Below are positions 421 to 12,872 of a stretch of 12,895 nt of DNA, piece by piece. Both the position numbers and the translations under genes were made by a program. The DNA is from Treponema sp. Its GTDB lineage: Bacteria > Spirochaetota > Spirochaetia > Treponematales > Breznakiellaceae. Where the stretch lies: NCBI GenBank assembly GCA_031277045.1, contig JAISLX010000157.1, positions 1 through 12,895 on the forward strand. Reading direction: 5' to 3'. How positions within the stretch are numbered: position 1 is the first letter of the stretch; every line of letters starts with the position of its first letter. Under the pieces are notes generated by a model. It saw only the letters and a list, made by a program, of their open reading frames with translations, was not told the origin of the DNA and did not search any database.

Positions 421-3204
421 CTACTGCAACAATGCTTCGGCCTCCCTGTGGTTCCACCTGCGGGCTATTTCGGCCGGGCTTTCCGAGGCGATGTTTTTTA
501 TGCTCTTGTCGGCGCCCAGGGCGATAAGCGCGCCGATAACGCCGGTGTCGCCGGTTTTCGCCGCGTAGTGAAGGACGGTATTTCCCGATCCGTCCCTGGC
601 CCCTATGGCCTTGCCTGAAAACACCGACTGTATCGCGTCGGGGCCTTTGGCTATGGCCAGATCCGCCGGGGTTTTGCCGTCGATGGCGGAAGCGAATACG
701 TCGGATCCCGCGTCGGCGAGGACCTTTGCCTCGCTAAAGGAATCCATGTCAAGGGCAAGCCTTAACGGGGTTCTGCCGTCTCTGTCTGTGGCGGAAATCC
801 TGCATCCGCGCGTGATAATGGCCTGGATCATCGCGGGCGCCGCCCGCTGTTTTATCGCGATATGAAGGGGCGAAAGGCCGTCGTCATCGGCAACATAGAT
901 TCGGTCTTTGGTAAGAAGCGTGCTTACCATGTACGGAGATACGGTAAGGGCCGTGTTGAACGGGGTAATACCCTGGGAATTTCTCGCGTGGATGCTCGAT
1001 CCGCAGCCGAGGAGCAGGGTAACAAGATCGACGCGCCGCATCACTACCGCTATATGGAGGGGAGTGTCGCCGGAATTGTTTCTGGCGGCCGGATCCGCGC
1101 CTTTTTCGACAAGCCGTTCCGCCGATCCGGGGAATCCCGCCATAACCGCTTCCATAAGGGGGGTATTGCCCTGATTATCCCTGGTTTCCAGCAAGGCCCC
1201 GCGATCCATAAGCTGTTCTTCCATGTCGTTAAGGCCCAGCCGCACGGCATCGTGAAGGGGGGCTTTGCCCGACAGATTCTGGGAATTGACGTTGAGCCCC
1301 GCCCCGATAAGGACAGGAACCGTTTTTTGGGCGTTCCATCGTACCGCGCTGTGAAGGCAGGAATTCCCCAGGGAATCCCTGGCGCCGGGCATCGCCCCCT
1401 GTTTAAGCAGGGCTTCCACGGTTTCGGGAGAATCCGCCCTGGCCGCCCAGAACAGGGGCGTTTCGCCCGTGGCGTTCACCGCCTCAAGTCTGGCGCCCTG
1501 CTTGACCATAAGCGGGACATGCTGGGCGAGTTTCCACTGCGCGATATAGTGAAGCGCGCTGTTTCCCAGCCCGTCTCTGGCTTCCAGGGTTTTTTCGTTC
1601 AGCATCCATTCCCGTACCGAATCGGAAGAATGAAAGGCCAGATAGAGGGGGCTTTCGCCCGCCGAATTTGGCGCGAAAATGTCGGCGCCCCGGGCGATAA
1701 GAAGATTGCCGGAATTTGCGTCGTTATTTGCAACGGCAATATGGAGCGCCGTGTTTCCTTCCCTGTTACGCGCGTTTACTTCCGCGTTTTTATCCAGGAT
1801 TTGGCTTATCAGGGCCGGATCCGCCCTGTTCCGCACGGCGATATGAAGAACGGTGTTTCCGGTACTGTCGTTTTTCTGTACCGTTTCCGGGGTGATAAGC
1901 TCTTCCAGGGAAGGCCGCTTTTCCCGTATGGCTTTTTCGATGGGAGTAAGCCCGGAATTGTCCGCCGCGAAGATGTCGGAATTATAGGCAAGCAACAAAG
2001 GGATAATGTTGACGCTGTCTTCCTCAACCGCGAGGTACAGGGCTGTTTTGCCCTCAATGTTACGGTTGGCGACTTCCGCTCCGCCGGAAAGCAGGCTCTC
2101 CGTCACATCGTAGTTCCGGCGAAGGGTTATCGCAACCTGGAGCGGTATTTCGCCGTGTTCGTCGCGAAGGTTGGGATTGGCCCCCCGGCCAATGAGCAGC
2201 AAAACGGCGGCCCTGTGCTGTTCAGGCGGTATTGCCAGATGCAAGGGCGTATTGCCTTTCGCGTCCTGAGCGTTTGCGTCGGCCCCGGCGGCGATAAGCT
2301 GTTCCATCGCCTCAAGCCGCCCGTTTCTGGCGGCTTCGTGAAGGGGCGTGGAGCCGGAGTTGTTTTTCACGTTAACATCGGCCCTCTTATCGATAAGATA
2401 TTCGATATAGCCTGAATAACCTTCCTGAGCGGCGTAGTGGTATACCGTATATCCGTCCATCAGTCTGATGTTATAATTGGAACTTCGTACCGCCGGCGCC
2501 AGATAGGCGAAAAACGGATTTTCCGAGGATCCTCCGGCGCGAATGATTTTTTCCGCCGTATAGGCGTGGTTTAGCGAGTCTGTCCGTAAAAAAGCCGTGT
2601 CCAGGGCGGTTTGTCCCGAAGCGTCTTTCCGGTTTACCTCTCCGCCTTTGGCGATGATGTAATCGACCATGCCGTGGGATCCGGTAAGGGCCGCGAGGTG
2701 AAGTATGGTTCTGCCCGAAGAATCGGCGTTGTTACTATTGCCGGCGCCGAGTATCGCTTTGGCAAAATCCTCGTTACGAAGACTTTGCAGGGCGATGGTT
2801 TCGGACGATTCGGCGGAAAGGGGCCGGTGAATGTCCGCCCCGGCGGCCGCCAAAACGGATCCGACAGCCGGATCCGCCTTTGCCGCGCTGATCGCCAGCG
2901 GGGTACGTCCCAGGTTGTCTGTGGCGTTCACATCGGCGCCCATGGCCACAAGGAAAGCGGCAAGCTCCGAATCTTCCATCTCGGCGGCTATATGAAGAGT
3001 TGTTCTTCCCTCTTCATCCCGTTCGGAAACATTGGTTTTACCCCGAAACAGCTCTTTCGCTTCCGCGGTTTTACCCTCCGCGAGCAGGCTAAAGACCGTC
3101 TCTTCCCCGGCCGGAGGAGTACTTTTACAGCCGGAAACCAGCAGAACAAGGGGCAATACGACAATCGTAAAAAACGTATACTTCATAGTATCTATTTTCG
3201 ACAT
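421..3204 (-). CDS. Large ankyrin-repeat lipoprotein (927 aa)
   Basis: The N-terminus is a lipoprotein signal: a short polar start, a hydrophobic stretch at residues ~10-23, and a lipobox V-S-G-C with the lipidated cysteine at 26. The mature protein is therefore predicted to be membrane-anchored and exposed to the periplasm or surface. From about residue 36 to the end it consists almost wholly of ankyrin repeats. I count about 26, with the usual G-x-T-P-L-H-x-A and L-L-x-x-G-A-D-V-N marks (for example near residues 66-98 and 270-300). Ankyrin arrays bind other proteins; no enzymatic domain is visible. Four repeats are shortened and lack the GADVN turn, and they recur at intervals of three or seven repeats. 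Two starts are possible: ATG at 3202-3204 and an in-frame ATG at 3184-3186 (residue 7). Neither has a Shine-Dalgarno sequence. The stop is TAG at 421-423. The partner and role are unknown. Confidence 0.93.
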   Translation of the reverse strand: MSKIDTMKYTFFTIVVLPLVLLVSGCKSTPPAGEETVFSLLAEGKTAEAKELFRGKTNVSERDEEGRTTLHIAAEMEDSELAAFLVAMGADVNATDNLGRTPLAISAAKADPAVGSVLAAAGADIHRPLSAESSETIALQSLRNEDFAKAILGAGNSNNADSSGRTILHLAALTGSHGMVDYIIAKGGEVNRKDASGQTALDTAFLRTDSLNHAYTAEKIIRAGGSSENPFFAYLAPAVRSSNYNIRLMDGYTVYHYAAQEGYSGYIEYLIDKRADVNVKNNSGSTPLHEAARNGRLEAMEQLIAAGADANAQDAKGNTPLHLAIPPEQHRAAVLLLIGRGANPNLRDEHGEIPLQVAITLRRNYDVTESLLSGGAEVANRNIEGKTALYLAVEEDSVNIIPLLLAYNSDIFAADNSGLTPIEKAIREKRPSLEELITPETVQKNDSTGNTVLHIAVRNRADPALISQILDKNAEVNARNREGNTALHIAVANNDANSGNLLIARGADIFAPNSAGESPLYLAFHSSDSVREWMLNEKTLEARDGLGNSALHYIAQWKLAQHVPLMVKQGARLEAVNATGETPLFWAARADSPETVEALLKQGAMPGARDSLGNSCLHSAVRWNAQKTVPVLIGAGLNVNSQNLSGKAPLHDAVRLGLNDMEEQLMDRGALLETRDNQGNTPLMEAVMAGFPGSAERLVEKGADPAARNNSGDTPLHIAVVMRRVDLVTLLLGCGSSIHARNSQGITPFNTALTVSPYMVSTLLTKDRIYVADDDGLSPLHIAIKQRAAPAMIQAIITRGCRISATDRDGRTPLRLALDMDSFSEAKVLADAGSDVFASAIDGKTPADLAIAKGPDAIQSVFSGKAIGARDGSGNTVLHYAAKTGDTGVIGALIALGADKSIKNIASESPAEIARRWNHREAEALLQ

Positions 3205-3245: not shown

Positions 3246-3327
3246 GCGGCCATGGTGGAACTTGTAGACACGCCAGCTTGAGGTGCTGGTGCCGAGAGGC
3301 ATGGAAGTTCAAGTCTTCTTGGCCGCA
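3246..3327 (+). tRNA. tRNA-Leu (anticodon GAG)
   Basis: A full cloverleaf can be folded. The 7-bp acceptor stem is GCGGCCA (3246-3252) with TGGCCGC (3320-3326), followed by discriminator A at 3327. The anticodon stem is CCAGC/GCTGG around the loop TTGAGGT, giving anticodon GAG at 3280-3282, which reads CUC and CUU leucine codons. A long variable arm (GCC...GGC, about 3291-3300) marks a class II tRNA, as expected for leucine. The T arm is 3303-3319 with loop TTCAAGT. CCA is not encoded (GAT follows), so it must be added after transcription. No downstream T-rich terminator is visible. Confidence 0.96.
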
Positions 3328-3445: not shown

Positions 3446-6106
3446 ATGGAAAAAATTTACAAACACCCTTGGTTGATACTTGCGGTACTGGCGGTCATAA
3501 CAGCGTTCTTTGCCTTTCAGCTTCCCCGGGTAAAGCTTGACAACAACAACATTCGTTTTGTTCCCGCCAGCGATCCGGCCCGGCTTACCTCGTCCTATAT
3601 TGACGACACTTTCGGGAGTTCGCTGTTTATCCTGGTGGGGCTTGAACGGAAATACGGGACCGTGTTTGACGGGCCTTTCCTGAACCGGGTCAGGGATTAC
3701 GTGGCGCGGATCGAGCAGATCAGCATGGTGGGCGAGGTGTATTCCATCGTCAGCGCGGACTACCTGTACGGGGATGAAGGGTCGATCTTTGTCGAGTCCC
3801 TGGTTTCCGGCGATTTTACCGGAACGGAGGAGGAAATCGCGGAACTGCGGAGACGACTCTTTTCCTGGGACCTTTACGAAAACGCCCTTATTTCAGGCGA
3901 TCTTACCGCCACCCAAATACTGGTTCCGCTGAACCTTACGGAAGAAAATTATGGTTCCTCCGAACTGGTGCGCGAATACATGGAAGTAAGGAACATTGCC
4001 CGCGCTTCTTTCGCGGATATGGCGGACGTGTACGTTACCGGGATCCCCGTTATCGCGTCCACGATCAGCGAGGCGATGGTCCAGGACATACGGCTCATGG
4101 TCCCCCTGGTTGTCCTGGTGGTAATCGTTATTGTCTTTATCCCTTTCAGGCGCATGGGGGCCACTATCCTGTCCCTGGTATCCGTCCTGATAGCCGTTAT
4201 TTGGTCCATTGGGGCTATGCCGCTTTTCGGCATCAAGCTGTCGGTTATTTCCACGGTGCTGCCGGTTATTTTGATTGCTATGGGCAGTTCCTACGGTCTG
4301 CATGTGGTAATTCACTACATCGAAGACCGGGGAATGGGGGGACCGGTCATGACGGCGCGGGAACACCGTAACCTGGTGATGGTTATGGTCCGCCGGACGG
4401 GAAAACCTATCTTTCTTGCCGCTCTTACCACCTTTGCCAGCTTTGTGTCCTTTTGTTTTACCCGCGTAACGCCCATTCGGGAGTTTGGGTTTTTCGCCAG
4501 TTTCGGCGTACTGGTATCGTTTGCGCTTACCATGACCCTCGTTCCGGCGATTCTGCTAATCCGGGGGGCCGTGCCCTTAAAGGAATTTCACCCCGCCCAC
4601 GGGGGTTCCACGCTGATTCCCGGAAAAAACGACAGCGTCCGGAACAAAATCGCGAGTTTTTTTTGCGCGGTGGCTTCCCGCAAGTTTTTGGTACTGTGGG
4701 GAGTCCTTATCGTGGCCGTTCTTTCGGTGTACGGCGCGTCAAAGATAATCATTGATAACGTGCTGGTGGAATATTTCAGAAGCGATACCGATATTTACCG
4801 GTCGGATAAATTTATCCGGGAAAAATTCGGGGGCTCCAAGATTCTAAGCGTCGTCGTGGAAGCGGAAAAGCCGGAGATTCTGCTTCACCCGGACAGCCTG
4901 GCGGCGATGGACCGTCTGGAAACCTATCTGGAATACCGGGTTCCCGAGGTAGGGAACGTGATGGGTTTTACCGATCTGATAAAACGTGTCAACCAGGTGC
5001 AGAATACCGGCGAAAGTCCCGGCGGCGTAGCGGCGGGTTTGGCTTCCCCGGCTTCGGAGAGCGCGGGTTTTTGGAATTTTGATTCGGATGAACAGGGCTA
5101 CGCGGGGGAGGAATCCTGGGCCGCGATTCCCGAAACCGGGGAGCCTGAGTATTCGGACGCCGCCGGGGACCGGGTGTACAGCATTGATGAAATCGCCGGG
5201 CTCCTGGACCGGGCTTCCAAATCCGGATTAAGCCGTTCCATAAGCGCCGGCGAGCTGGCGCGGGAATTCGGGCGGCTTATCAATTACGAGGGATATTCGT
5301 ATTACGAAATACCCCAGGACCCGGCCCGTTACGGGAAGGCCAGCAAAGAAGAACTGACCGATCTTATTTTCAGCTATCTGCTGCTGCTCTCCGGCGATAT
5401 TTCCAGTTATGCCAACGATCCCCTGGAGCCGACCAGCGTCAAGCTTACGGTCCAGTTGAAAACAATGGGCCAGGAGGATACGAACAGGGGCGTTGAGGAA
5501 ATACGCCGTTTTGTGGAGGCCAATTTCCCCAAAAACCTGAACGTTATTATAGGGGGCAGCGCCATCGTGGAGGGTACCACCAACGGTCTGGTGGTCCAGT
5601 CCCAGTTAATATCGGTAATCATCTCGATTATCGCCATGTTTGTGATTATGTCGGTTTCGTACCGGTCTCTGGCCGCGGGGGGCATTGCCATAATTCCCCT
5701 TTCCATACTTATCCTGGCCAACTTCGCGGCTATGGGGTTTTTGAAGATCAAACTGAACCTTGCCACCGCCATGATCTCCAGTGTTTCCATCGGGGTGGGC
5801 ATCGATTATACCATTCATTTTATCGAGGCCTATATGCGCGAATACAGGCTGTCCGGCGGGACGGGGGATTTTTTGCGGCGGGCTTACTATGTTTCGGGAA
5901 CGGCGATTCTGGTGGATACCCTTTCGGTCGGCCTTGGTTTCGCGGTTCTCTGGTTTTCCAATTTTATCGTGCTGAGGGATTTCGGGCTTCTGGTCTGTCT
6001 GGCCATGATGATAAGCGCCCTTTCCGGGCTTATAATTGTTCCTGCGCTGCTGGGGGTTCTGAAACCAAAATTTATCAGCCGGGAGTTTCCCCAAAAACTT
6101 GGGTAA
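3446..6106 (+). CDS. RND/MMPL-superfamily inner-membrane exporter (886 aa)
   Basis: The layout is that of RND transporters: one membrane helix (~8-26), a large periplasmic loop (~27-215), five helices (~216-370), a second single helix (~412-430), a second large loop (~431-710) and five more helices (~715-875). Helix-associated motifs include GSSYGLHVVIHYIED (~275) and GVGIDYTIHFIEAY (~780), the latter typical of MMPL-type predicted exporters rather than AcrB-type drug pumps. These proteins use proton flow to move lipidic or hydrophobic substrates outward. The downstream LolA-like and barrel genes suggest cargo destined for the outer membrane, which is inference. The second loop holds a Gly/Ser/Glu-rich, probably disordered stretch at ~518-580. 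The ATG at 3446 has no Shine-Dalgarno sequence but opens directly onto the first helix. The stop TAA (6104-6106) lies inside a strong hairpin. A T8 run lies at 4657-4664. Confidence 0.93.
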   Translation: MEKIYKHPWLILAVLAVITAFFAFQLPRVKLDNNNIRFVPASDPARLTSSYIDDTFGSSLFILVGLERKYGTVFDGPFLNRVRDYVARIEQISMVGEVYSIVSADYLYGDEGSIFVESLVSGDFTGTEEEIAELRRRLFSWDLYENALISGDLTATQILVPLNLTEENYGSSELVREYMEVRNIARASFADMADVYVTGIPVIASTISEAMVQDIRLMVPLVVLVVIVIVFIPFRRMGATILSLVSVLIAVIWSIGAMPLFGIKLSVISTVLPVILIAMGSSYGLHVVIHYIEDRGMGGPVMTAREHRNLVMVMVRRTGKPIFLAALTTFASFVSFCFTRVTPIREFGFFASFGVLVSFALTMTLVPAILLIRGAVPLKEFHPAHGGSTLIPGKNDSVRNKIASFFCAVASRKFLVLWGVLIVAVLSVYGASKIIIDNVLVEYFRSDTDIYRSDKFIREKFGGSKILSVVVEAEKPEILLHPDSLAAMDRLETYLEYRVPEVGNVMGFTDLIKRVNQVQNTGESPGGVAAGLASPASESAGFWNFDSDEQGYAGEESWAAIPETGEPEYSDAAGDRVYSIDEIAGLLDRASKSGLSRSISAGELAREFGRLINYEGYSYYEIPQDPARYGKASKEELTDLIFSYLLLLSGDISSYANDPLEPTSVKLTVQLKTMGQEDTNRGVEEIRRFVEANFPKNLNVIIGGSAIVEGTTNGLVVQSQLISVIISIIAMFVIMSVSYRSLAAGGIAIIPLSILILANFAAMGFLKIKLNLATAMISSVSIGVGIDYTIHFIEAYMREYRLSGGTGDFLRRAYYVSGTAILVDTLSVGLGFAVLWFSNFIVLRDFGLLVCLAMMISALSGLIIVPALLGVLKPKFISREFPQKLG

Positions 6107-6126
6107 GTTTGGGGGAAACTCCCGGC
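6078..6126 (+). repeat. Long palindrome enclosing the exporter stop codon
   Basis: GCCGGGAGTTTCCCC (6078-6092) and its exact reverse complement (6112-6126) form a 15-bp perfect stem. The interior pairs further (AACTT 6096-6100 with AAGTT 6105-6109) around a GGGT loop, so the whole structure has about 20 base pairs. The TAA stop is at the edge of the loop. There is no T-run on the downstream side. It could protect the mRNA 3' end, attenuate transcription, or be a copy of a dispersed palindromic element. Confidence 0.85.
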
Positions 6127-6130
6127 AAAG

Positions 6131-6162
6131 GCCGTTTCAACAGGTCAAATTTTGAAACCGGC
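6131..6162 (+). repeat. Imperfect hairpin in the exporter-carrier spacer
   Basis: GTTTCAA (6134-6140) pairs with TTGAAAC (6152-6158). The flanking GCC/GGC (6131-6133 and 6160-6162) can extend the stem past one bulged base. The loop is eleven bases. It is the second of three successive inverted repeats in this spacer. Confidence 0.55.
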
Positions 6163-6172
6163 TTGAATAGAG

Positions 6173-6200
6173 TTGTTCAGAAACCTCAGTTTCTGAACAA
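6173..6200 (+). repeat. Perfect 12-bp inverted repeat, four-base loop
   Basis: TTGTTCAGAAAC (6173-6184), loop CTCA, then GTTTCTGAACAA (6189-6200): a perfect stem of 12 base pairs. It is AT-rich compared with its surroundings and lacks a following T-run. It could be a processing or stability element, a protein-binding palindrome or a dispersed repeat. Confidence 0.8.
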
Positions 6201-6223
6201 TATCCGCTTAAAATACACTGCCC

Positions 6224-6258: not shown

Positions 6259-7086
6259 ATGAGAACAAAAAAAATGAGCTGCCTCGTCCTGAAAGGCGGG
6301 GTGTTACGCCCGCGCTTTCCAATAACCGGCGCCGTGTTGTTTTTCCTGGCGGCCCTTTCCGCGGGCGCCCAAAACGCGGAGGAAATTGTCCGCGCTTCCC
6401 GGGACAGGATAAAGGCGGACACCACGTATACCAGATCCACAATGGCGCTGAGGGCGAAGAACGGTTCCGAAACCCGGCGGGTTATCGAGCAGTTTACCAA
6501 AAACGGACCCGGCGGGGACCGGGTTATGATCGTGTTCCACGAACCGCGTTCGGTGGCGGGGACAAGGTTTTTGACAATCGAGAATCCCGGCGCGGAGGAC
6601 GACCGCTGGATATTCCAGCCCGCCCGCGGCAGGGAGCAGCGGATTGCCCAGGGAGACGGGTCGAAGAGTTTCGTGGGAACCGACTTTTCCAACGACGATA
6701 TTTCCAGCGCCAACCGGGACGCGGAACTGGACACCCACACGCTGGTCCGGGAAGAGAAAGTGGGGGAGAATCCCTGTTACGTGATCCAGTCCGTACCCAA
6801 AGACAGCTCCTACCAGTATTCCAAAATGATCCAGTGGATCGACAAAAACACCGGGGTATGCCACAAAATCGATCTGTACGACAGGAAGAACGCGCTGGTA
6901 AAAACCCTGGAAACCCTGGAGCTTAAGCTTATCGAGGGCCGCCTTACTGCCACGCAGACCCGGATGACCAGCCACGCCGCGGGTACTTCCACGCAAATCA
7001 TCGTGGACGATATCCGTTACAACGCCAACATCCCCGACGGGATCTTTACGCGGCAGTTCCTCGCTACGGGGAGGGTGCCCCAGTGA
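6259..7086 (+). CDS. LolA-like outer-membrane lipoprotein-sorting protein (275 aa)
   Basis: The start is placed at ATG 6259 because GGGAGGT lies seven to thirteen bases upstream and because residues 1-37 then form a proper signal peptide: basic start, hydrophobic core VLFFLAALSA, cleavage after AGA. An upstream TTG extension would run through the palindromic spacer and is not credible. The mature part matches the LolA-like family that pairs with MMPL exporters: DDRWIFQPARGREQRI (~115-130) and FVGTDFSNDDISS (~138-150) are characteristic. The fold is an open half-barrel that shields a lipid or acyl chain in the periplasm. It probably passes cargo from the preceding exporter to the following outer-membrane protein, which is inference. 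Its TGA overlaps the next GTG (GTGA), implying translational coupling. The exact cargo cannot be told. Confidence 0.9.
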   Translation: MRTKKMSCLVLKGGVLRPRFPITGAVLFFLAALSAGAQNAEEIVRASRDRIKADTTYTRSTMALRAKNGSETRRVIEQFTKNGPGGDRVMIVFHEPRSVAGTRFLTIENPGAEDDRWIFQPARGREQRIAQGDGSKSFVGTDFSNDDISSANRDAELDTHTLVREEKVGENPCYVIQSVPKDSSYQYSKMIQWIDKNTGVCHKIDLYDRKNALVKTLETLELKLIEGRLTATQTRMTSHAAGTSTQIIVDDIRYNANIPDGIFTRQFLATGRVPQ

Positions 7087-8636
7087 AACGGTTTTCAAAC
7101 GGCGGCCGGCCGCTCGGCCTGCTGGCCGCCTTTGTCCTTTTCGGGGCCTCCGCGCTGGGGGCGCAGGATTACTGGTTTGACTTCGCGGACGGCGCCGGAA
7201 ACGGCGGCGCTGAAAGTGTCGAAAGCGCCGGAAACAGCGGTTCCGGCGGCCTAACCGGCAAGACCGGGCTTAGAGCGGGCGGGGAGATTGCCGCGGAACT
7301 CCTGGTGTTTCCCCGCGAATTGCGCGACAGGGGGGGGGGCGCGGATTGGGGCAATCTGATAAACGCCAAACTCAATATCGGGGCGTCAAGCTCCAGGGCC
7401 GAGGCGGTGCTGAATTTCAAGCTGTCTCCGGCCGCGCTCGCGGCTTCCGGCAGCCCGTTCTGGACCCCTCCGGTCATCGACGAAGCCTATCTGCGGGTCT
7501 TCCTGGGGTCCCTGACCCTGGAAACGGGCCTGCGGAAGCTGGCCTGGGGCCGCGCGGACATCCGGGGTCCGCTTGACGTAACCAACCCCCTGGACTACAC
7601 GGACCTGACCAACGCGGGCGACACGATGGGCCGCAAGATAGCCCGGCCCATGATCCGCGCTTCCCTTCCTCTGGGCGCCGCCGCCGGCCTGGAGGGGGTT
7701 TTTATTCCCTCGTTCCAGGGCCACCTCTACGCCCTGGACCCGGACCATCGCTGGCACCCCAGCGCCATAACCACCGGCCGCCGGGACCGCATGATCGGGG
7801 ACCTGGCGGCGGGAATTGTAGAACGTCTGCCCGTACCCCTTATATCCCCGGACCAGTTAGCCGCTATGATACAATCCAATCCAAATGCGCCTGCCATTGG
7901 CCCAAACGATATTCCCGACACCCGCGGCCTTGAGTACGCCCAGGGGGGCATTAGGTTCAGCGCCACGCTGGGACACGCGGACATCGGGGCGCAGTACTAC
8001 TCAGGCCACCTGTTCCGGCCCAGTTTTACGATTGGGGGGGCGGAAGAACTCCTGGCCACGATACCCGCCATTCCCATTCTCCAGTTGGAAAATGCTCTTC
8101 AATCGGCGAATCTGAAGCCCCGCATCGCGTACAACCGCTACCACCAGATCGGCCTGGACTATACTCAGGTGATCTTTGACTCAGGCTTCCGGGCGGAACT
8201 GGCGGCTTTCATTACCGGAGACCTTGGGGGGGACGACGGGGGCGTCTACAATCCCTTCCTGGCCTGGTCCGCGGGCTTTGACCGGGATATCTTGGGCTTC
8301 ACGTTTTTTATCGAGGCGGACGGGAACATACGCCTGCTCGAAGGCAGGGTGGGAAGCAGTGCCGCCCTGGACACGGAGGCGGGTTCCCCCTTTACCGCGA
8401 CGGCCCTGACTGCCCAGGTTTCCCGGGCCTTTTTCCAGGACCGGCTGGAGGCGAAATTCGGCCTTCTGTGGAACATTGAAGCCGCCGATGTCTACCTGAT
8501 GCCCTCCCTAAGCTACAGCATCGACGATGTAACGGTTGTCCTTTCAGGCGGGATCTTCGCCGGAAAGGACGGGGGGGAACTTTCCCAGTACCGGGACAGG
8601 GCTTATGTCAAAACCGCGCTGACGTATTCGTTTTAG
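7083..8636 (+). CDS. Outer-membrane beta-barrel protein, DUF1302-like (517 aa)
   Basis: GTG 7083 is the start; GGGGAGGG (7068-7075) precedes it by seven bases and it overlaps the previous stop. Residues 1-27 form a signal peptide (cleavage near LGA-Q). The rest alternates short hydrophobic and polar strands and ends ...TALTYSF, the terminal phenylalanine typical of barrels inserted by BamA. The segment GLRKLAWGRADIRGP with VTNPLDYTD (~149-173) recalls DUF1302 and related barrels. In proteobacteria DUF1302 genes neighbour DUF1329 and RND exporter genes, a set like this one. The barrel assignment is firm; the DUF1302 label is tentative. A Gly/Ser-rich stretch follows the signal (~residues 37-62). 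The gene contains a G10 run at 7330-7339 and G7 runs at 8034, 8226 and 8571. Slippage at the G10 run would truncate the protein after about residue 86. Confidence 0.8.
   Translation: MKRFSNGGRPLGLLAAFVLFGASALGAQDYWFDFADGAGNGGAESVESAGNSGSGGLTGKTGLRAGGEIAAELLVFPRELRDRGGGADWGNLINAKLNIGASSSRAEAVLNFKLSPAALAASGSPFWTPPVIDEAYLRVFLGSLTLETGLRKLAWGRADIRGPLDVTNPLDYTDLTNAGDTMGRKIARPMIRASLPLGAAAGLEGVFIPSFQGHLYALDPDHRWHPSAITTGRRDRMIGDLAAGIVERLPVPLISPDQLAAMIQSNPNAPAIGPNDIPDTRGLEYAQGGIRFSATLGHADIGAQYYSGHLFRPSFTIGGAEELLATIPAIPILQLENALQSANLKPRIAYNRYHQIGLDYTQVIFDSGFRAELAAFITGDLGGDDGGVYNPFLAWSAGFDRDILGFTFFIEADGNIRLLEGRVGSSAALDTEAGSPFTATALTAQVSRAFFQDRLEAKFGLLWNIEAADVYLMPSLSYSIDDVTVVLSGGIFAGKDGGELSQYRDRAYVKTALTYSF
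7330..7339 (+). repeat. Homopolymer G10 inside the barrel gene
   Basis: Ten consecutive Gs cover codons 83-86 (Arg-Gly-Gly-Gly). The gene is in frame at this length. Runs of this size in GC-rich or spirochaete genes are prone to slipped-strand changes, so this is a candidate on/off switch. Confidence 0.9.
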
Positions 8637-8649
8637 CGGGTTGAACGAT

Positions 8650-8669
8650 ACCCCGGGCAAGCCCCGGGT
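8650..8669 (+). other. GC hairpin after the barrel gene
   Basis: ACCC-C-GGG (8650-8657) pairs with CCC-C-GGGT (8662-8669) around a CAAG loop, with one C-C mismatch. It starts 13 bases after the barrel stop and is the only candidate for ending the exporter transcript. The absence of a T-run makes it a weak terminator at best, so read-through into the flagellar operon is possible. Confidence 0.4.
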
Positions 8670-8712
8670 GCAGTATTTGACGCCGGGACCGGCCCGTTTA
8701 AGAGGTTTACGT

Positions 8713-8738
8713 TAAAAAAAAAAATCACCCGCCGATAT
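8713..8738 (+). promoter_or_regulatory. Sigma-28 (FliA/SigD-type) promoter of the flgN operon
   Basis: TAAA at 8713-8716 and GCCGATAT at 8731-8738 are 14 bases apart. This matches the known sigma-28/SigD pattern TAAA-N14-16-GCCGATA(A/T) with a complete -10. The position, 24 bases before the flgN ATG, and the late-class flagellar genes that follow support it. The predicted start is about 8744-8746, giving a leader of only 16-18 bases that still contains the AAGGGG ribosome site. The -35 is the first part of an A11 run (8714-8724). Confidence 0.85.
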
Positions 8739-8756
8739 GTAATCGAAGGGGTGATT
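8714..8756 (-). terminator. Intrinsic terminator on the minus strand, overlapping the flgN promoter
   Basis: AATCACCC (8723-8730) and GGGTGATT (8749-8756) pair perfectly over eight bases. An inner CGAT/ATCG (8733-8736 and 8742-8745) adds four pairs around a five-base loop. Read on the minus strand, the hairpin is followed directly by an unbroken T-run (complement of A 8714-8724), the textbook form of a Rho-independent terminator. On the plus strand there is no T-run, and the right arm contains the flgN Shine-Dalgarno sequence. No minus-strand gene to the right needs it, so it would act on antisense transcription of the flagellar operon. Confidence 0.65.
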
Positions 8757-8761
8757 CAGAA

Positions 8762-9244
8762 ATGCACAAAGTCTGTTCCCAGGTTCTAGGGCGGGAGGCC
8801 GAACTCCTGCAAGGTATCGCGGAAGCTCAAAAGCGGGTCCGGAACGCGGTGATTAAACGGAAATGGGCCGATTTCGAGACCATTTTGGCCGCCATAGGCC
8901 GGACCGCCGCGGAACTGGAAGGGCTGGAAAGGGAACGAAAGGCTCTTTTTGGTAAATTATCCGGTGGTTTTCCGGACAATGAAGCCGGTTTCTACCGGTT
9001 TCTCGCATTCCTTCCTCCCGGCGAACAAAAAGAACTAACGGCGAAATACCGGGAACTCAAGATAGCGGCGCTCCGGATCAAAATCAACAACGAGAATCTT
9101 CTGGCCTATATCACCGGAATCAAGGCCACCATGTCGGCCTTTATCGAGTCCGCCTTTCCCGACCGCAGGGGGCGGGTTTACTCCCGCAGCGGCGCGGTAA
9201 TGCCCCAGGACATGCGCTGTATGGTGCTTAACCGCAGCCTTTAG
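8762..9244 (+). CDS. flgN: FlgN-like flagellar export chaperone (160 aa)
   Basis: This is a small, helix-rich, charged protein with heptad-like stretches (about residues 12-65 and 88-120), directly before flgK and flgL, as expected for FlgN. FlgN keeps the junction proteins FlgK and FlgL soluble in the cytoplasm and delivers them to the flagellar type III export gate. FlgN proteins vary widely in sequence, so the call leans on size, helical make-up, an LxxLxxERKALF-type segment near residues 53-64 and position. The ATG at 8762 follows AAGGGG (8746-8751) by ten bases. The stop TAG (9242-9244) overlaps the AGGAG of flgK, so translation of the two is probably coupled. It is the first gene after a sigma-28 promoter. 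Confidence 0.85.
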   Translation: MHKVCSQVLGREAELLQGIAEAQKRVRNAVIKRKWADFETILAAIGRTAAELEGLERERKALFGKLSGGFPDNEAGFYRFLAFLPPGEQKELTAKYRELKIAALRIKINNENLLAYITGIKATMSAFIESAFPDRRGRVYSRSGAVMPQDMRCMVLNRSL

Positions 9245-9252
9245 GAGTAAAT

Positions 9253-11148
9253 ATGACATCCACCTTTATGGGTATCGAAATCGGGAAACGGGGGGTTCAT
9301 GCTCATCAGCAGGCCCTGAACGTTACGGGCCACAACCTGACCAACGCTTCTACCGAAGGCTATTCCCACCAGCGGATCGAGATGTCCGCTTTTGATCCCA
9401 TCTATCTGCCCGGACTTAACCGGGAGGAAACCCCGGGTCAGATTGGCCAAGGGACCGTAGTGGAACGGATTCAGCGGGTCCGGGATCAACTGCTGGACAG
9501 GCAGATCGTCTCCCAGGCTTCCGAGGAGGGGTACTGGCAGACGCGGGATCCCTATGTCAGGATGATGGACCAGATATACCTGGAACCCGGTGAAAAATCC
9601 GTCCGGAGCAAGATGGACGAATTCTGGGACGCGTGGCAGGAGCTGGCGACCTACCCGGCGGATACCCCCCCCCGTACCGCTGTACTGGAACGGGGGAAAA
9701 CCCTTATTGACGGAATACACCACCGCTACCAGGCCCTAAAAGGGCTGCAGGTGATGGCGGACGAGGATATTCAGCTTACCGTGGCCAAGGTAAACGAGAT
9801 TTCCAGGGAAATTGCCGCCCTAAACCGGGATATTGCACGGGTAAAAGCACAGGGAGATAACCCCAACGACCTTATGGACCGCCGGGATCTGCTGGTGGAC
9901 AACCTTTCGTCCATCATCGACATAACCGTGGACTACCGGGACAACGACGAATTCATGGTTCACACTGCGGGGCTCGTGCTGGTTCAGGGGCAGATCGGGC
10001 GGCAGTTTGGGCTGGAACGGAACATCGATACCGAAGGTTACTCCCGGATCGTCTGGCAGGACACCGGGGACGAAGCCCGCTTTCAGCGGGGGAGTTTGGC
10101 GGCCCTGGTGGAACTGCGGGATGTAACCATTGAAGACGAAATTCAGACCCTGGACAACATGACCATGAATTTCGCGGACCTGGTAAACGAAGTCCACCAG
10201 GCCGGTTACGGCATCAACGGTACGACGGGGAACAACTTCTTTTCCGAATATCCCTTTGTTACCAATGTAAACGGAAACTATGACCGGGACGGGGACGGGG
10301 TGTACGATTCCAGTTACATTTACCGCGTCAACGGGACTAACGTCCTGGAAAGCCAGGCCCAGGTTGGACTTGACGGGGAGCTTACCTTTTCCGGTCCCGG
10401 CGGCGAAAATAAAACGATCCCTTACTATTCCACCGACACCGTACAGGACATCATCACCAGAATCAACAATTCGGGGGCCGAGGTGGTAGCCCGGCTTAAC
10501 CGGGACGGTTTTCTTTCCCTCAAGGCTACCACTGCCGGAATTGTGGACGGGCTGGAACGGCAAAACCCCGACTTTGTGATCCGGCATATCGAGGATTCCG
10601 GTTTTTTTCTGGGGGGATACGCGGGGATCTTCGCGGATCCCGGGCCGGGGGGAAGCTATGACTGGGCCCAGGCGGACGCGGCGGGGGTACTGCGGGGCGG
10701 CGCGGAATATTACGCTCTGGCTCCTATCGCCCATCCTTCCGGCTGGATCGAGGTGAACCCCTCCCTGCTCAAGGATCCCGGCTCCGTGGCCTCCGGCTTC
10801 GGCGTTAACGGGCAGCCTGCCAATCCGGGAAACGGCGACGCGGCGGCGGCCATTGCGGCTATCCGCAACACGGCGGTCATGGTCGGATCCCTGGGGACTT
10901 TTGACGATTACTTCGCCGACGCCGCCGGGCGGATCGGTCTGCTGGGGGAGCGGGCGGTAACAGCCCTGGAAACGGAAAACCTGATCATGAAACAACTGCA
11001 TGACATGCGGCAGTCGGTTTCCGGGGTGAATATCGACGAGGAACTTTCCAACATGATCAAGTACCAGCACGGTTACGCCGCCGCCGCCCGGTTTATTACC
11101 ACGGTAAATTCCATGCTGGATACGCTGATCAACCGGATGGGGGTGTAA
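9253..11148 (+). CDS. flgK: Flagellar hook-associated protein 1, FlgK (HAP1, 631 aa)
   Basis: The N-terminal basal-body-rod segment contains the diagnostic QQALNVTGHNLTNASTEGYS near residues 18-37. The C-terminus ends with the family's helical zipper (SGVNIDEELSNMIKYQHGYAAAARFITT and NSMLDTLINRMGV). FlgK forms the first junction ring between hook and filament, which in spirochaetes lies in the periplasm. A flagellin-IN-like motif (TVQDIITRINNSGAEVVARL) lies near residue 396 in the variable middle. The length is normal for treponemes and longer than the ~550 residues of enteric FlgK. Start ATG 9253 is preceded by TAGGAG (9242-9247). A C9 run at 9665-9673 (about codons 138-140) is a possible slippage site. 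flgL begins three bases after the stop. Confidence 0.97.
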   Translation: MTSTFMGIEIGKRGVHAHQQALNVTGHNLTNASTEGYSHQRIEMSAFDPIYLPGLNREETPGQIGQGTVVERIQRVRDQLLDRQIVSQASEEGYWQTRDPYVRMMDQIYLEPGEKSVRSKMDEFWDAWQELATYPADTPPRTAVLERGKTLIDGIHHRYQALKGLQVMADEDIQLTVAKVNEISREIAALNRDIARVKAQGDNPNDLMDRRDLLVDNLSSIIDITVDYRDNDEFMVHTAGLVLVQGQIGRQFGLERNIDTEGYSRIVWQDTGDEARFQRGSLAALVELRDVTIEDEIQTLDNMTMNFADLVNEVHQAGYGINGTTGNNFFSEYPFVTNVNGNYDRDGDGVYDSSYIYRVNGTNVLESQAQVGLDGELTFSGPGGENKTIPYYSTDTVQDIITRINNSGAEVVARLNRDGFLSLKATTAGIVDGLERQNPDFVIRHIEDSGFFLGGYAGIFADPGPGGSYDWAQADAAGVLRGGAEYYALAPIAHPSGWIEVNPSLLKDPGSVASGFGVNGQPANPGNGDAAAAIAAIRNTAVMVGSLGTFDDYFADAAGRIGLLGERAVTALETENLIMKQLHDMRQSVSGVNIDEELSNMIKYQHGYAAAARFITTVNSMLDTLINRMGV

Positions 11149-11151
11149 CAA

Positions 11152-12399
11152 ATGAGACGGGTTTCCACAGACATGCCGAATAACGACATGCGGTACTACC
11201 TGCGCCGTCAGGAAGACGGGCTGGACAACGTTCAGTCAAAAATTGCCAGCCAGTCCCGTATCCTGGCCCTGCGGGACGATCCCCTGGCGGCGAGCCACGC
11301 GGTACGCTACCAGTCCTACTTGGCCCGGCTGGAACGCTTCGAGAAGAATACCTACTACGCCCGGGAACATTACAACAACACCTATGCCTACATGAACGAG
11401 GCCAACGCCGTACTCCAGAGGATTCGGGAACTGGCGGTCCAGGGGGCCAACGGAACCTACGCCGCCGATGACATGAAGATCATGGCGGGGGAAATAAACG
11501 AGCTTATCAAGGAACTGGCGGCCATCGCCAACGCCCAGGGGCCGGACGGCAAACAGATCTTCGCCGGGGACCGGGCCCTTTCCGAACCCTTCCGCATGGT
11601 GGAAGGAACCGTGGCCGGGGGCGGGGAGAGCATGGTGGTCCGGGTTGAATACCGGGGGGCCGGCGCGTCCCGGCGGACCGAAATAAGCGACGGGACCTAT
11701 GCGGAACTGGATATATCCGGCGGCGAGGCCTTTTGGGCTGAAAAGATGCAGATCATCTCCACCCTGGATTCAAGCGAATTCCGGGTCACCGAAGATGCCG
11801 GCATTTTTATTGACGGGGTGGAGATTCCCCTCAGCGTGGGGGACACGGTCCAGGCCGTCATCGCCAAGATCAACGACTCCGCCGCCCCGGTAAAAGCCTA
11901 CCTGGACCCCCAGACCCGGGGCCTTGCCCTGGAAGGGACCAACGCCCACCTCATCCGCCTGGAGGACAGGGAGGGTTCCCGGACCCTCCAGGAACTGGGC
12001 CTGATCCGGGGGAACCCGGTAAACGGGGCCCCCAACTGGGCCGATTCCGCCCGGGTGGCCGGGGGCTCAATCTTCGACATGACGATCCGGCTCCGGGACG
12101 CCCTGTACCGGGGGGACCAGGAATTCGTGGGGAGCCTGGGGATCGGCGGCCTTGATCTGGCCCTGGGAAATCTGAACGCCAAAATCTCCGAGCTGGGAAG
12201 CCGGGAGGAGCGGGCGGAGATGACCTGGCAGCGGCTGAACCAGGAAATCCCCGACGTCACCGCCCAGCTTGGCCGGGAGGCGGGCCTGGACTTTATAAAC
12301 GCCGCCGCGGAACTGGGGATGATGGACTTTGCCCACCGGGCGGCCCTGCAAACCACCGCCAAGATCCTCCCCCCCACGCTGTTGGATTTTTTACGGTAG
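11152..12399 (+). CDS. flgL: Flagellar hook-associated protein 3, FlgL (HAP3, 415 aa)
   Basis: This is a flagellin-family N-terminal helical domain with ILALRDDPLAASHAVRY (~37-53), a coiled region ending in GPDGKQIFAGDRALSEPF (~130-147), a beta-rich middle and a C-terminal flagellin helix (~365-415). It ends LLDFLR, as FlgL proteins often do. FlgL is the second junction protein, which joins FlgK to the first flagellin subunits. A flagellin-IN-like motif (TVQAVIAKINDSAAPVKAYL) is at ~231-250, matching the one in FlgK. At 415 residues it exceeds enteric FlgL (~317) through a larger middle domain. Start ATG 11152 follows the flgK stop by three bases, with GGGGG (11139-11143) as ribosome site. 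A C7 run lies near the 3' end (12369-12375). Confidence 0.96.
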   Translation: MRRVSTDMPNNDMRYYLRRQEDGLDNVQSKIASQSRILALRDDPLAASHAVRYQSYLARLERFEKNTYYAREHYNNTYAYMNEANAVLQRIRELAVQGANGTYAADDMKIMAGEINELIKELAAIANAQGPDGKQIFAGDRALSEPFRMVEGTVAGGGESMVVRVEYRGAGASRRTEISDGTYAELDISGGEAFWAEKMQIISTLDSSEFRVTEDAGIFIDGVEIPLSVGDTVQAVIAKINDSAAPVKAYLDPQTRGLALEGTNAHLIRLEDREGSRTLQELGLIRGNPVNGAPNWADSARVAGGSIFDMTIRLRDALYRGDQEFVGSLGIGGLDLALGNLNAKISELGSREERAEMTWQRLNQEIPDVTAQLGREAGLDFINAAAELGMMDFAHRAALQTTAKILPPTLLDFLR

Positions 12400-12425: not shown

Positions 12426-12872
12426 GTGAAAGTACGGACCAAGGCCTTTGGCTTTATCGAAGCGGAAGAGCGGCAGAGAATAGTATTCCCCCAGGGACTC
12501 TTCGGGTTTGAGGAACTCAAGGAGTATGTACTCCTGGACGCGGAAAAACAGCCCTTCTACTGGCTCCAATCGGTGGATAAGGAGCAGGTGGCCTTTGTCG
12601 TGGTAAACCCCTTCCTGATCCGCGCCGACTACGAGGTGAATATCGGCAACGAGGAACTGGCGGATATCGGCATCGACGCCCCGGAAAAGACCCTTATCTT
12701 TAGCATCGTTACGATTCCCCCGGCCGGCGATCCCATGACGGTAAACCTGCAGGGCCCCCTGGTGATCAACCGGGATACCCGCCGGGGAAAGCAGGCCATC
12801 CTTACCGACTCCCGCTGGAAGACCAAGCACGACATCATGGCGGAACTTGCCTCCGCCCGGGCCCGGGGGTAA
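12426..12872 (+). CDS. fliW: Flagellar assembly factor FliW (148 aa)
   Basis: Recognised by FPQGLFGFEEL (residues 21-31), a Q-x-x-x-x-F-x-V-V-x-P segment near 51-60, and MTVNLQGPLVIN with ...GKQAIL towards the C-terminus. FliW binds free flagellin. When flagellin is exported, FliW is released, binds CsrA and relieves CsrA repression of flagellin translation; this mechanism was worked out in Bacillus and Campylobacter. Start GTG 12426 is chosen because AGGAG (12415-12419) precedes it by six bases and the protein then begins in line with the family. The 26-base gap after flgL contains CAGGAG, which resembles a CsrA-binding GGA site and would overlap the ribosome site. That is only a suggestion. 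csrA starts three bases after the stop. Confidence 0.96.
   Translation: MKVRTKAFGFIEAEERQRIVFPQGLFGFEELKEYVLLDAEKQPFYWLQSVDKEQVAFVVVNPFLIRADYEVNIGNEELADIGIDAPEKTLIFSIVTIPPAGDPMTVNLQGPLVINRDTRRGKQAILTDSRWKTKHDIMAELASARARG

What the first reader, a model, noticed from the sequence alone, without database searches (positions are those of the whole stretch)
8713..8762. Sigma-28 promoter, ribosome-site hairpin and antisense terminator share the same 45 bases before flgN
A complete sigma-28 -10 (GCCGATAT) lies in the loop region of an inverted repeat whose right arm carries the flgN ribosome site and whose left arm abuts an A11 run. The three functions reuse the same bases, and I know of no standard description of this combination.
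Basis: partly seen in the sequence, partly recalled or inferred. Interest (0 to 1): 0.7.

Follow-up and report, generated by a model that had tools for sequence, protein, structure and literature searches.

The report
Flagellar promoter with an incidental hairpin
A spirochete flagellar operon has an ordinary, well-conserved flagellar promoter set right against its ribosome site; the hairpin around it in this sequence is real but not kept by relatives, and the switch it could form is already known from phage T4.

Summary
The anatomy is confirmed. A sigma-28-type promoter (-35 TAAA 8713-8716 or TTAA 8712-8715; -10 GCCGATAT 8731-8738) lies inside a perfect 8-bp inverted repeat (8723-8730/8749-8756). 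The right arm holds much of the flgN Shine-Dalgarno (SD); the left arm runs out of an A11 tract. The promoter is the conserved part: 109 of 133 distinct relatives' regions (window included) have it upstream of flgK/flgN, against 4.7 in shuffles. In 68 of 100 the start codon lies at most 23 nt after the -10, so the mRNA should begin at the SD. The repeat is not conserved: the closest relative keeps all 34 bases from the -10 through the ATG but its longest Watson-Crick stem is 3 bp. Across 69 loci, SD occlusion in read-through RNA is no stronger than with shuffled upstream DNA (ddG 2.98 against 2.78 kcal/mol, p 0.89), though some weaker tests gave small positive signals. The A tract recurs in 2 other loci, and no antisense client gene was recognised. 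A promoter inside an SD-hiding hairpin is known from T4 genes e and I-TevI. Best reading: ordinary sigma-28 promoter, hairpin probably incidental.

The parts
8712..8716 (+). -35 element of the sigma-28 promoter: TTAA 8712-8715 (spacer 15) or TAAA 8713-8716 (spacer 14)
   Evidence: aligned T-A-A elements in relatives
8714..8724 (+). A11 tract, overlapping the -35 and the first two bases of the left arm
   Evidence: A8 or more in 3 of 109 loci
8723..8730 (+). left arm of the inverted repeat, AATCACCC, in the promoter spacer; not conserved
8731..8738 (+). sigma-28 -10 element GCCGATAT
   Evidence: motif in 109 of 133 regions
8733..8745 (+). inner helix CGAT/ATCG inside the loop of the repeat
   Evidence: 86.4% of cells paired over six aligned sequences
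8745..8746 (+). inferred transcription start of the sigma-28 mRNA (7-8 nt after the -10); not mapped
   Evidence: inference from the -10 position
8746..8754 (+). SD-like sequence AAGGGGTGA of flgN
8749..8756 (+). right arm of the inverted repeat, GGGTGATT
8762..9244 (+). flgN (PF05130)
9253..11148 (+). flgK
   Evidence: FlgK_D1
11152..12399 (+). flgL-like gene (Flagellin_N, Flagellin_IN; name inferred from position)
12426..12872 (+). fliW (PF02623)
7083..8636 (+). co-directional upstream gene of 517 aa without a Pfam match, possible source of read-through RNA
   Evidence: no terminator-like site listed in 8637-8761 (loops of 3-8 nt only)

Best explanation
This is a standard sigma-28 (FliA) late flagellar promoter for the flgN-flgK-flgL-like-fliW genes, in a compact form common in related spirochetes: the SD begins about 7 nt after the -10, so the sigma-28 mRNA should start at or just before its own ribosome site. 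The 8-bp inverted repeat is a species-specific complementarity between the fast-changing promoter spacer and the SD, most likely incidental. Any RNA reading through from the co-directional upstream gene would still fold and hide most of the SD, so in this species read-through RNA is probably a poor flgN template while sigma-28 RNA, which lacks the left arm, is a better one. Shown here: the sequence elements, conservation of promoter and spacing, lack of conservation of the repeat, computed folding energies. Inferred: transcription start, sigma-28 dependence, existence of read-through RNA, any effect on translation.
For: Sigma-28 motif in 109 of 133 regions against 4.7 in shuffles and 4 on the reverse strand; strict form 103 of 133 against 1.5 and 1. 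ATG at most 23 nt after the -10 in 68 of 100 with a start found; first SD-like motif 6-7 nt after the -10 in 67 of 109. L001 (FlgK 92%) is identical from the -10 through the ATG, yet its longest Watson-Crick stem is 3 bp. SD-opening cost does not differ from shuffled upstream DNA over 69 loci. SD-covering stems are not enriched over 494 gene starts. Complementarity ranks for spacer and SD (9 of 85 below 0.05) are matched by control windows (3 to 9 of 85).
Against: The window's own fold is extreme (z -4.0; 0 of 100 shuffles). Some tests gave weak positive signals: own arms pair better than swapped arms (p 0.028; stems of 8 bp or more 3 against 0.65, p 0.029), 13 of 87 loci have spacer-shuffle rank below 0.05 where 4.4 are expected, and segments fold slightly better than shuffles (mean z -0.43, 9 of 70 below 0.05). 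L004 of the same genus also hides its SD (P 0.03), and L055 has its own 8-bp stem.
Confidence: 0.55

Rival explanations
1. The hairpin is a selected read-through silencer of the T4 gene e kind: RNA from upstream hides the flgN SD, while RNA started at the sigma-28 promoter in the loop lacks the left arm and is translated, so flgN-to-fliW translation occurs only when FliA is active.
For: Geometry matches. SD opening costs 8.4-12.3 kcal/mol in 8 of 9 read-through models against 2.6-4.9 in the sigma-28 RNA. A co-directional gene ends 76 nt before the -35 region with no terminator-like site listed between. L004 and L055 hide their SDs too.
Against: No family-wide signal; lost in L001, and L002, L003, L005, L006, L007 are like their shuffles in SD-opening cost. 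With a 6-base SD the predicted difference vanishes (0.48 against 0.46 unpaired), because GGG can pair with early flgN codons in the sigma-28 RNA. No RNA data show read-through.
Confidence: 0.3
2. The A11 tract and the stem form an intrinsic terminator on the minus strand that stops antisense RNA before it runs through the promoter.
For: Minus strand of 8700-8770 folds to -16.4 kcal/mol, z -3.0, with the stem followed by a T11 run.
Against: No recognised gene on the minus strand nearby; A tract in 3 of 109 loci; L001 keeps A8 but not the 8-bp stem.
Confidence: 0.05
3. The repeat is a binding site for a protein (a dimeric DNA regulator, or an RNA regulator such as CsrA) over the promoter or SD.
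For: The gene cluster carries fliW; a CsrA homolog and sites near flaB1 and flaB2 SDs are suggested in T. denticola (passage).
Against: The predicted leader has no GGA, the core of a CsrA site (recalled; sequence); the arms are not conserved.
Confidence: 0.05

Closest known systems
sigma-28 (FliA) flagellar promoters, e.g. Treponema denticola PflaB2 (PMC9481697, passages)
   Same: -10 CCGATAA and -35 TTAA there, matching the elements here; T. denticola also has the order flgN-flgK-flgL-fliW-csrA.
   Different: PflaB2 starts 124 bp before its gene; here the SD is expected at the very 5' end of the mRNA.
Phage T4 gene e and I-TevI translational control (PMC3014915 and PMC2988022, passages)
   Same: A promoter just upstream of the ribosome site yields RNA without the 5' part of an SD-hiding hairpin that longer RNA would form.
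   Different: There it is shown by experiment and works in phage timing; here it is only predicted, in a bacterial flagellar operon, and not conserved.
Short-leader and leaderless mRNAs of Leptospira interrogans (PMC5243855, abstract and passages)
   Same: A spirochete in which many transcripts start within 10 nt of the start codon.
   Different: Here the SD is kept, so the mRNA is not leaderless; in Leptospira leaderless genes were under-represented in cell motility at 37 C.

Membership tests
sigma-28 flagellar promoter | -10 like GCCGATAA and -35 like TAAA at about 15 nt (consensus recalled) | tested here: met
   7 of 8 and 4 of 4 at spacer 14, or 7 of 8 and 3 of 4 at spacer 15
sigma-28 flagellar promoter | lies before late flagellar genes and is kept in relatives | tested here: met
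   flgN, flgK, flgL-like, fliW; 109 of 133 regions
sigma-28 flagellar promoter | start site and dependence on FliA | not testable with these tools
   no RNA data; no whole genome held for the window
T4 gene e type read-through control | SD paired in longer RNA and freer in promoter-derived RNA | tested here: met
   computed only; but not seen with a 6-base SD
T4 gene e type read-through control | longer RNA exists and is poorly translated | not testable with these tools
   no RNA or protein data
T4 gene e type read-through control | hairpin kept by selection in relatives | tested here: not met
   69 loci, p 0.89; weak signals
intrinsic terminator (minus strand) | stem-loop followed by a T tract | tested here: met
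   loop region larger than the scan allows, so not listed there
intrinsic terminator (minus strand) | ends a transcript of a recognised gene | tested here: inconclusive
   no recognised minus-strand gene nearby; 3' ends not testable

The most novel reading that the evidence does not exclude
In this species, and perhaps independently in others (L004, L055), a chromosomal sigma-28 promoter has acquired a T4-gene-e-style hairpin that makes the flagellar hook-junction operon translatable mainly from FliA-started RNA: a checkpoint that arises and is lost quickly because the promoter spacer is free to drift into complementarity with the SD just downstream.
Probability: 0.2. Interest if true: 0.55.

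Novelty: new member of a known kind. Interest (0 to 1): 0.25.

Why it matters
If the hairpin works as a read-through silencer, a phage timing device would sit on a bacterial flagellar checkpoint. Even if it does not, the data indicate that many related spirochetes start their flgN mRNA at the SD itself, a simple prediction for start-site mapping, and they show how readily an SD-hiding hairpin can appear around such a compact promoter without being conserved.

Tried and rejected
Conserved hairpin: tested by longest stems and SD pairing, own-versus-swapped arms (p 0.16, 64 loci; p 0.028, 89 loci; p 0.024, 87 loci, 0.10 when matched for GC, while a window 22 nt further upstream gave 0.009 and 0.027), spacer shuffles (13 of 87 below 0.05, 4.4 expected; 9 of 85, with five controls at 3, 8, 6, 7 and 9 of 85), pair counts on six aligned sequences (outer helix 62.5% of cells paired, 26 of 500 shuffles as high), dinucleotide-shuffle folds (9 of 70 below 0.05) and SD-opening cost (6 of 69 below 0.05, p 0.89 overall). 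I weigh the last most, because it measures the proposed effect.

Antisense terminator: set aside for want of a recognised client gene and of conservation. General use of SD-covering hairpins: not enriched over 494 gene starts. The repeat-pattern search over 195 genomes was too unspecific to use. A search of phage records found no match. Paper searches: one search held none; two searches listed papers that I judged off topic from titles and abstract starts only.

Rows dropped: L072 (no FlgK start found); regions with under 520 nt upstream and duplicates, from 185 (window included) to 133. Of 133, 24 had no motif by the rule; of 109 with a motif, 9 had no start codon found. Near-identical arm pairs were removed before the swap tests (109 to 89). 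Beyond the 30 loci returned I fetched 60 more stretches and left its other listed places.

Full report
What is there. The stretch before flgN (PF05130) holds an A11 tract 8714-8724 overlapping a -35 element (TTAA 8712-8715 with a 15-nt spacer, or TAAA 8713-8716 with 14), AATCACCC 8723-8730, the sigma-28 -10 GCCGATAT 8731-8738, an SD-like AAGGGGTGA 8746-8754, GGGTGATT 8749-8756 and the ATG at 8762. The two 8-base arms pair perfectly around an 18-nt loop that holds the whole -10; a four-pair helix CGAT/ATCG forms inside the loop. RNA of 8713-8762 folds to -14.3 kcal/mol, z -4.0; the minus strand of 8700-8770 to -16.4, z -3.0; the longer plus-strand stretch 8700-8790 is unremarkable as a whole (z -0.37), although its centroid is the same hairpin.

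Chance. Fourteen perfect repeats of 8 bp or more (loops 3-25) occur in the window, against a mean of 4.25 in 20 shuffles. In 40 related loci a stem of 8 bp or more with a loop of 15-25 nt occurs about every 1,779 bases. Less common is an arm that covers an SD: 3 of 494 gene starts in 80 related loci, no more than in swapped (1-4) or shuffled (1-7) controls; one of the three is the flgN of L055. At this locus shuffled upstream sequence gives a stem as long in 0.5% of 200 trials.

The promoter is conserved. FlgK relatives were found at 101 places and the best 80 kept, the closest titled Treponema sp.. The sigma-28 motif is in 109 of 133 (shuffled mean 4.7; reverse strand 4), or 103 of 133 by a stricter rule (1.5; 1). 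Of the 109, 100 had a start codon by the rule used, and in 68 of these the ATG lies at most 23 nt after the -10. In 67 of 109 the first SD-like motif begins 6-7 nt after the -10. The sigma-28 mRNA should therefore begin at its SD. The start itself is inferred; no RNA data were available.

The hairpin is not conserved. L001 (FlgK 92%) is identical to the window from the -10 through the ATG, 34 bases, yet its spacer ends TTTCCCGCCC. Its longest Watson-Crick stem is 3 bp, and a weaker fold with a G-U pair remains (-10.8 kcal/mol). Swapped-arm and shuffle tests gave mixed results: positive but weak, not, and matched by control windows. The measure closest to the proposed effect, the cost of opening the SD in read-through RNA minus that in sigma-28 RNA, averages 2.98 kcal/mol against 2.78 with shuffled upstream sequence (69 loci, Wilcoxon p 0.89); 6 of 69 have rank below 0.05. 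Of the eight genus members tested, only the window (7.5 against 1.0; 0 of 100 shuffles) and L004 (10.7 against 4.7; P 0.03) stand out; L001, L002, L003, L005, L006 and L007 do not. Against this, folding of the short segment shows a slight general excess over dinucleotide shuffles (mean z -0.43; 9 of 70 below 0.05), with L002 and L004 at P 0.013 and L001 at 0.127.

What it would do. In read-through models the 9-nt SD costs 8.4-12.3 kcal/mol to open in 8 of 9 cases (6.0 in the ninth), against 2.6-4.9 in six models of RNA starting at 8745 or 8746. With a 6-base SD the difference vanishes (0.48 against 0.46 unpaired), because GGG can pair with early flgN codons. The upstream gene ends at 8636 on the same strand, and no terminator-like site is listed between it and flgN (loops of 3-8 nt only). 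None of the three upstream proteins tested matched the 80 loci, many of which hold little DNA upstream of flgN. Read-through is possible but not shown.

The antisense terminator. The shape is right, but no recognised minus-strand gene nearby would use it. An A tract of 8 or more occurs in 3 of 109 loci, and L001, one of them, lacks the 8-bp stem.

Known comparisons. For T4 gene e and I-TevI a late promoter yields RNA without the 5' part of an SD-hiding hairpin present in longer RNA (passages of PMC3014915 and PMC2988022). T. denticola has a mapped sigma-28 promoter with -10 CCGATAA and -35 TTAA and the order flgN-flgK-flgL-fliW-csrA (passages of PMC9481697). Short and leaderless 5' ends are common in Leptospira, though under-represented in motility genes at 37 C (abstract and passages of PMC5243855). 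Searches of the held open-licence library listed no bacterial sigma-28 case of the T4 device that I recognised from titles and abstract starts; this is not proof that none is in print.

Verdict. The finding is a correct reading of an ordinary, conserved sigma-28 promoter with a species-specific hairpin. The hairpin may lower translation of read-through RNA in this species, but the comparative evidence favours an incidental origin.

Noticed in passing
window 6070-6215: Three strong hairpins between the MMPL and LolA-like genes fold to -65.8 kcal/mol (z -8.6). The last, about 6162-6213, is a dispersed palindromic repeat: matches in 6 of 7 genus genomes (G007 41, G003 32, G008 14, G002 11, G006 3, G001 1, G004 0; both strands of one copy can count twice, and in two genomes only 40 candidates were scored). 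Rfam matches there were all below gathering score.
   Followed up: partly
L216 (G004:C37), upstream of a TPR-repeat lipoprotein gene; also L217 and L218: A 10-bp perfect stem AACCTTGCGG/CCGCAAGGTT encloses CCGATAAT and covers the SD; 12 bp in L217, 7 bp in L218, not seen in L219, L220 and L221. The -35 TAAA is not kept in place, and TTGCGG of the left arm could be a sigma-70 -35 (inference). A possible second promoter-in-hairpin in the genus.
   Followed up: partly
133 distinct regions upstream of flgK, including window 8712-8764: Compact spacing of sigma-28 -10, SD and ATG: ATG at most 23 nt after the -10 in 68 of 100 with a start found. Several longer-leader loci (L008, L021, L023, L042) keep a GAGG- or GAGA-like motif just after the -10.
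   Followed up: partly
window 3246-3327: tRNA-Leu (anticodon GAG) on the plus strand.
   Followed up: no
window 421-3204: A 927-aa minus-strand protein made of many ankyrin repeats.
   Followed up: no
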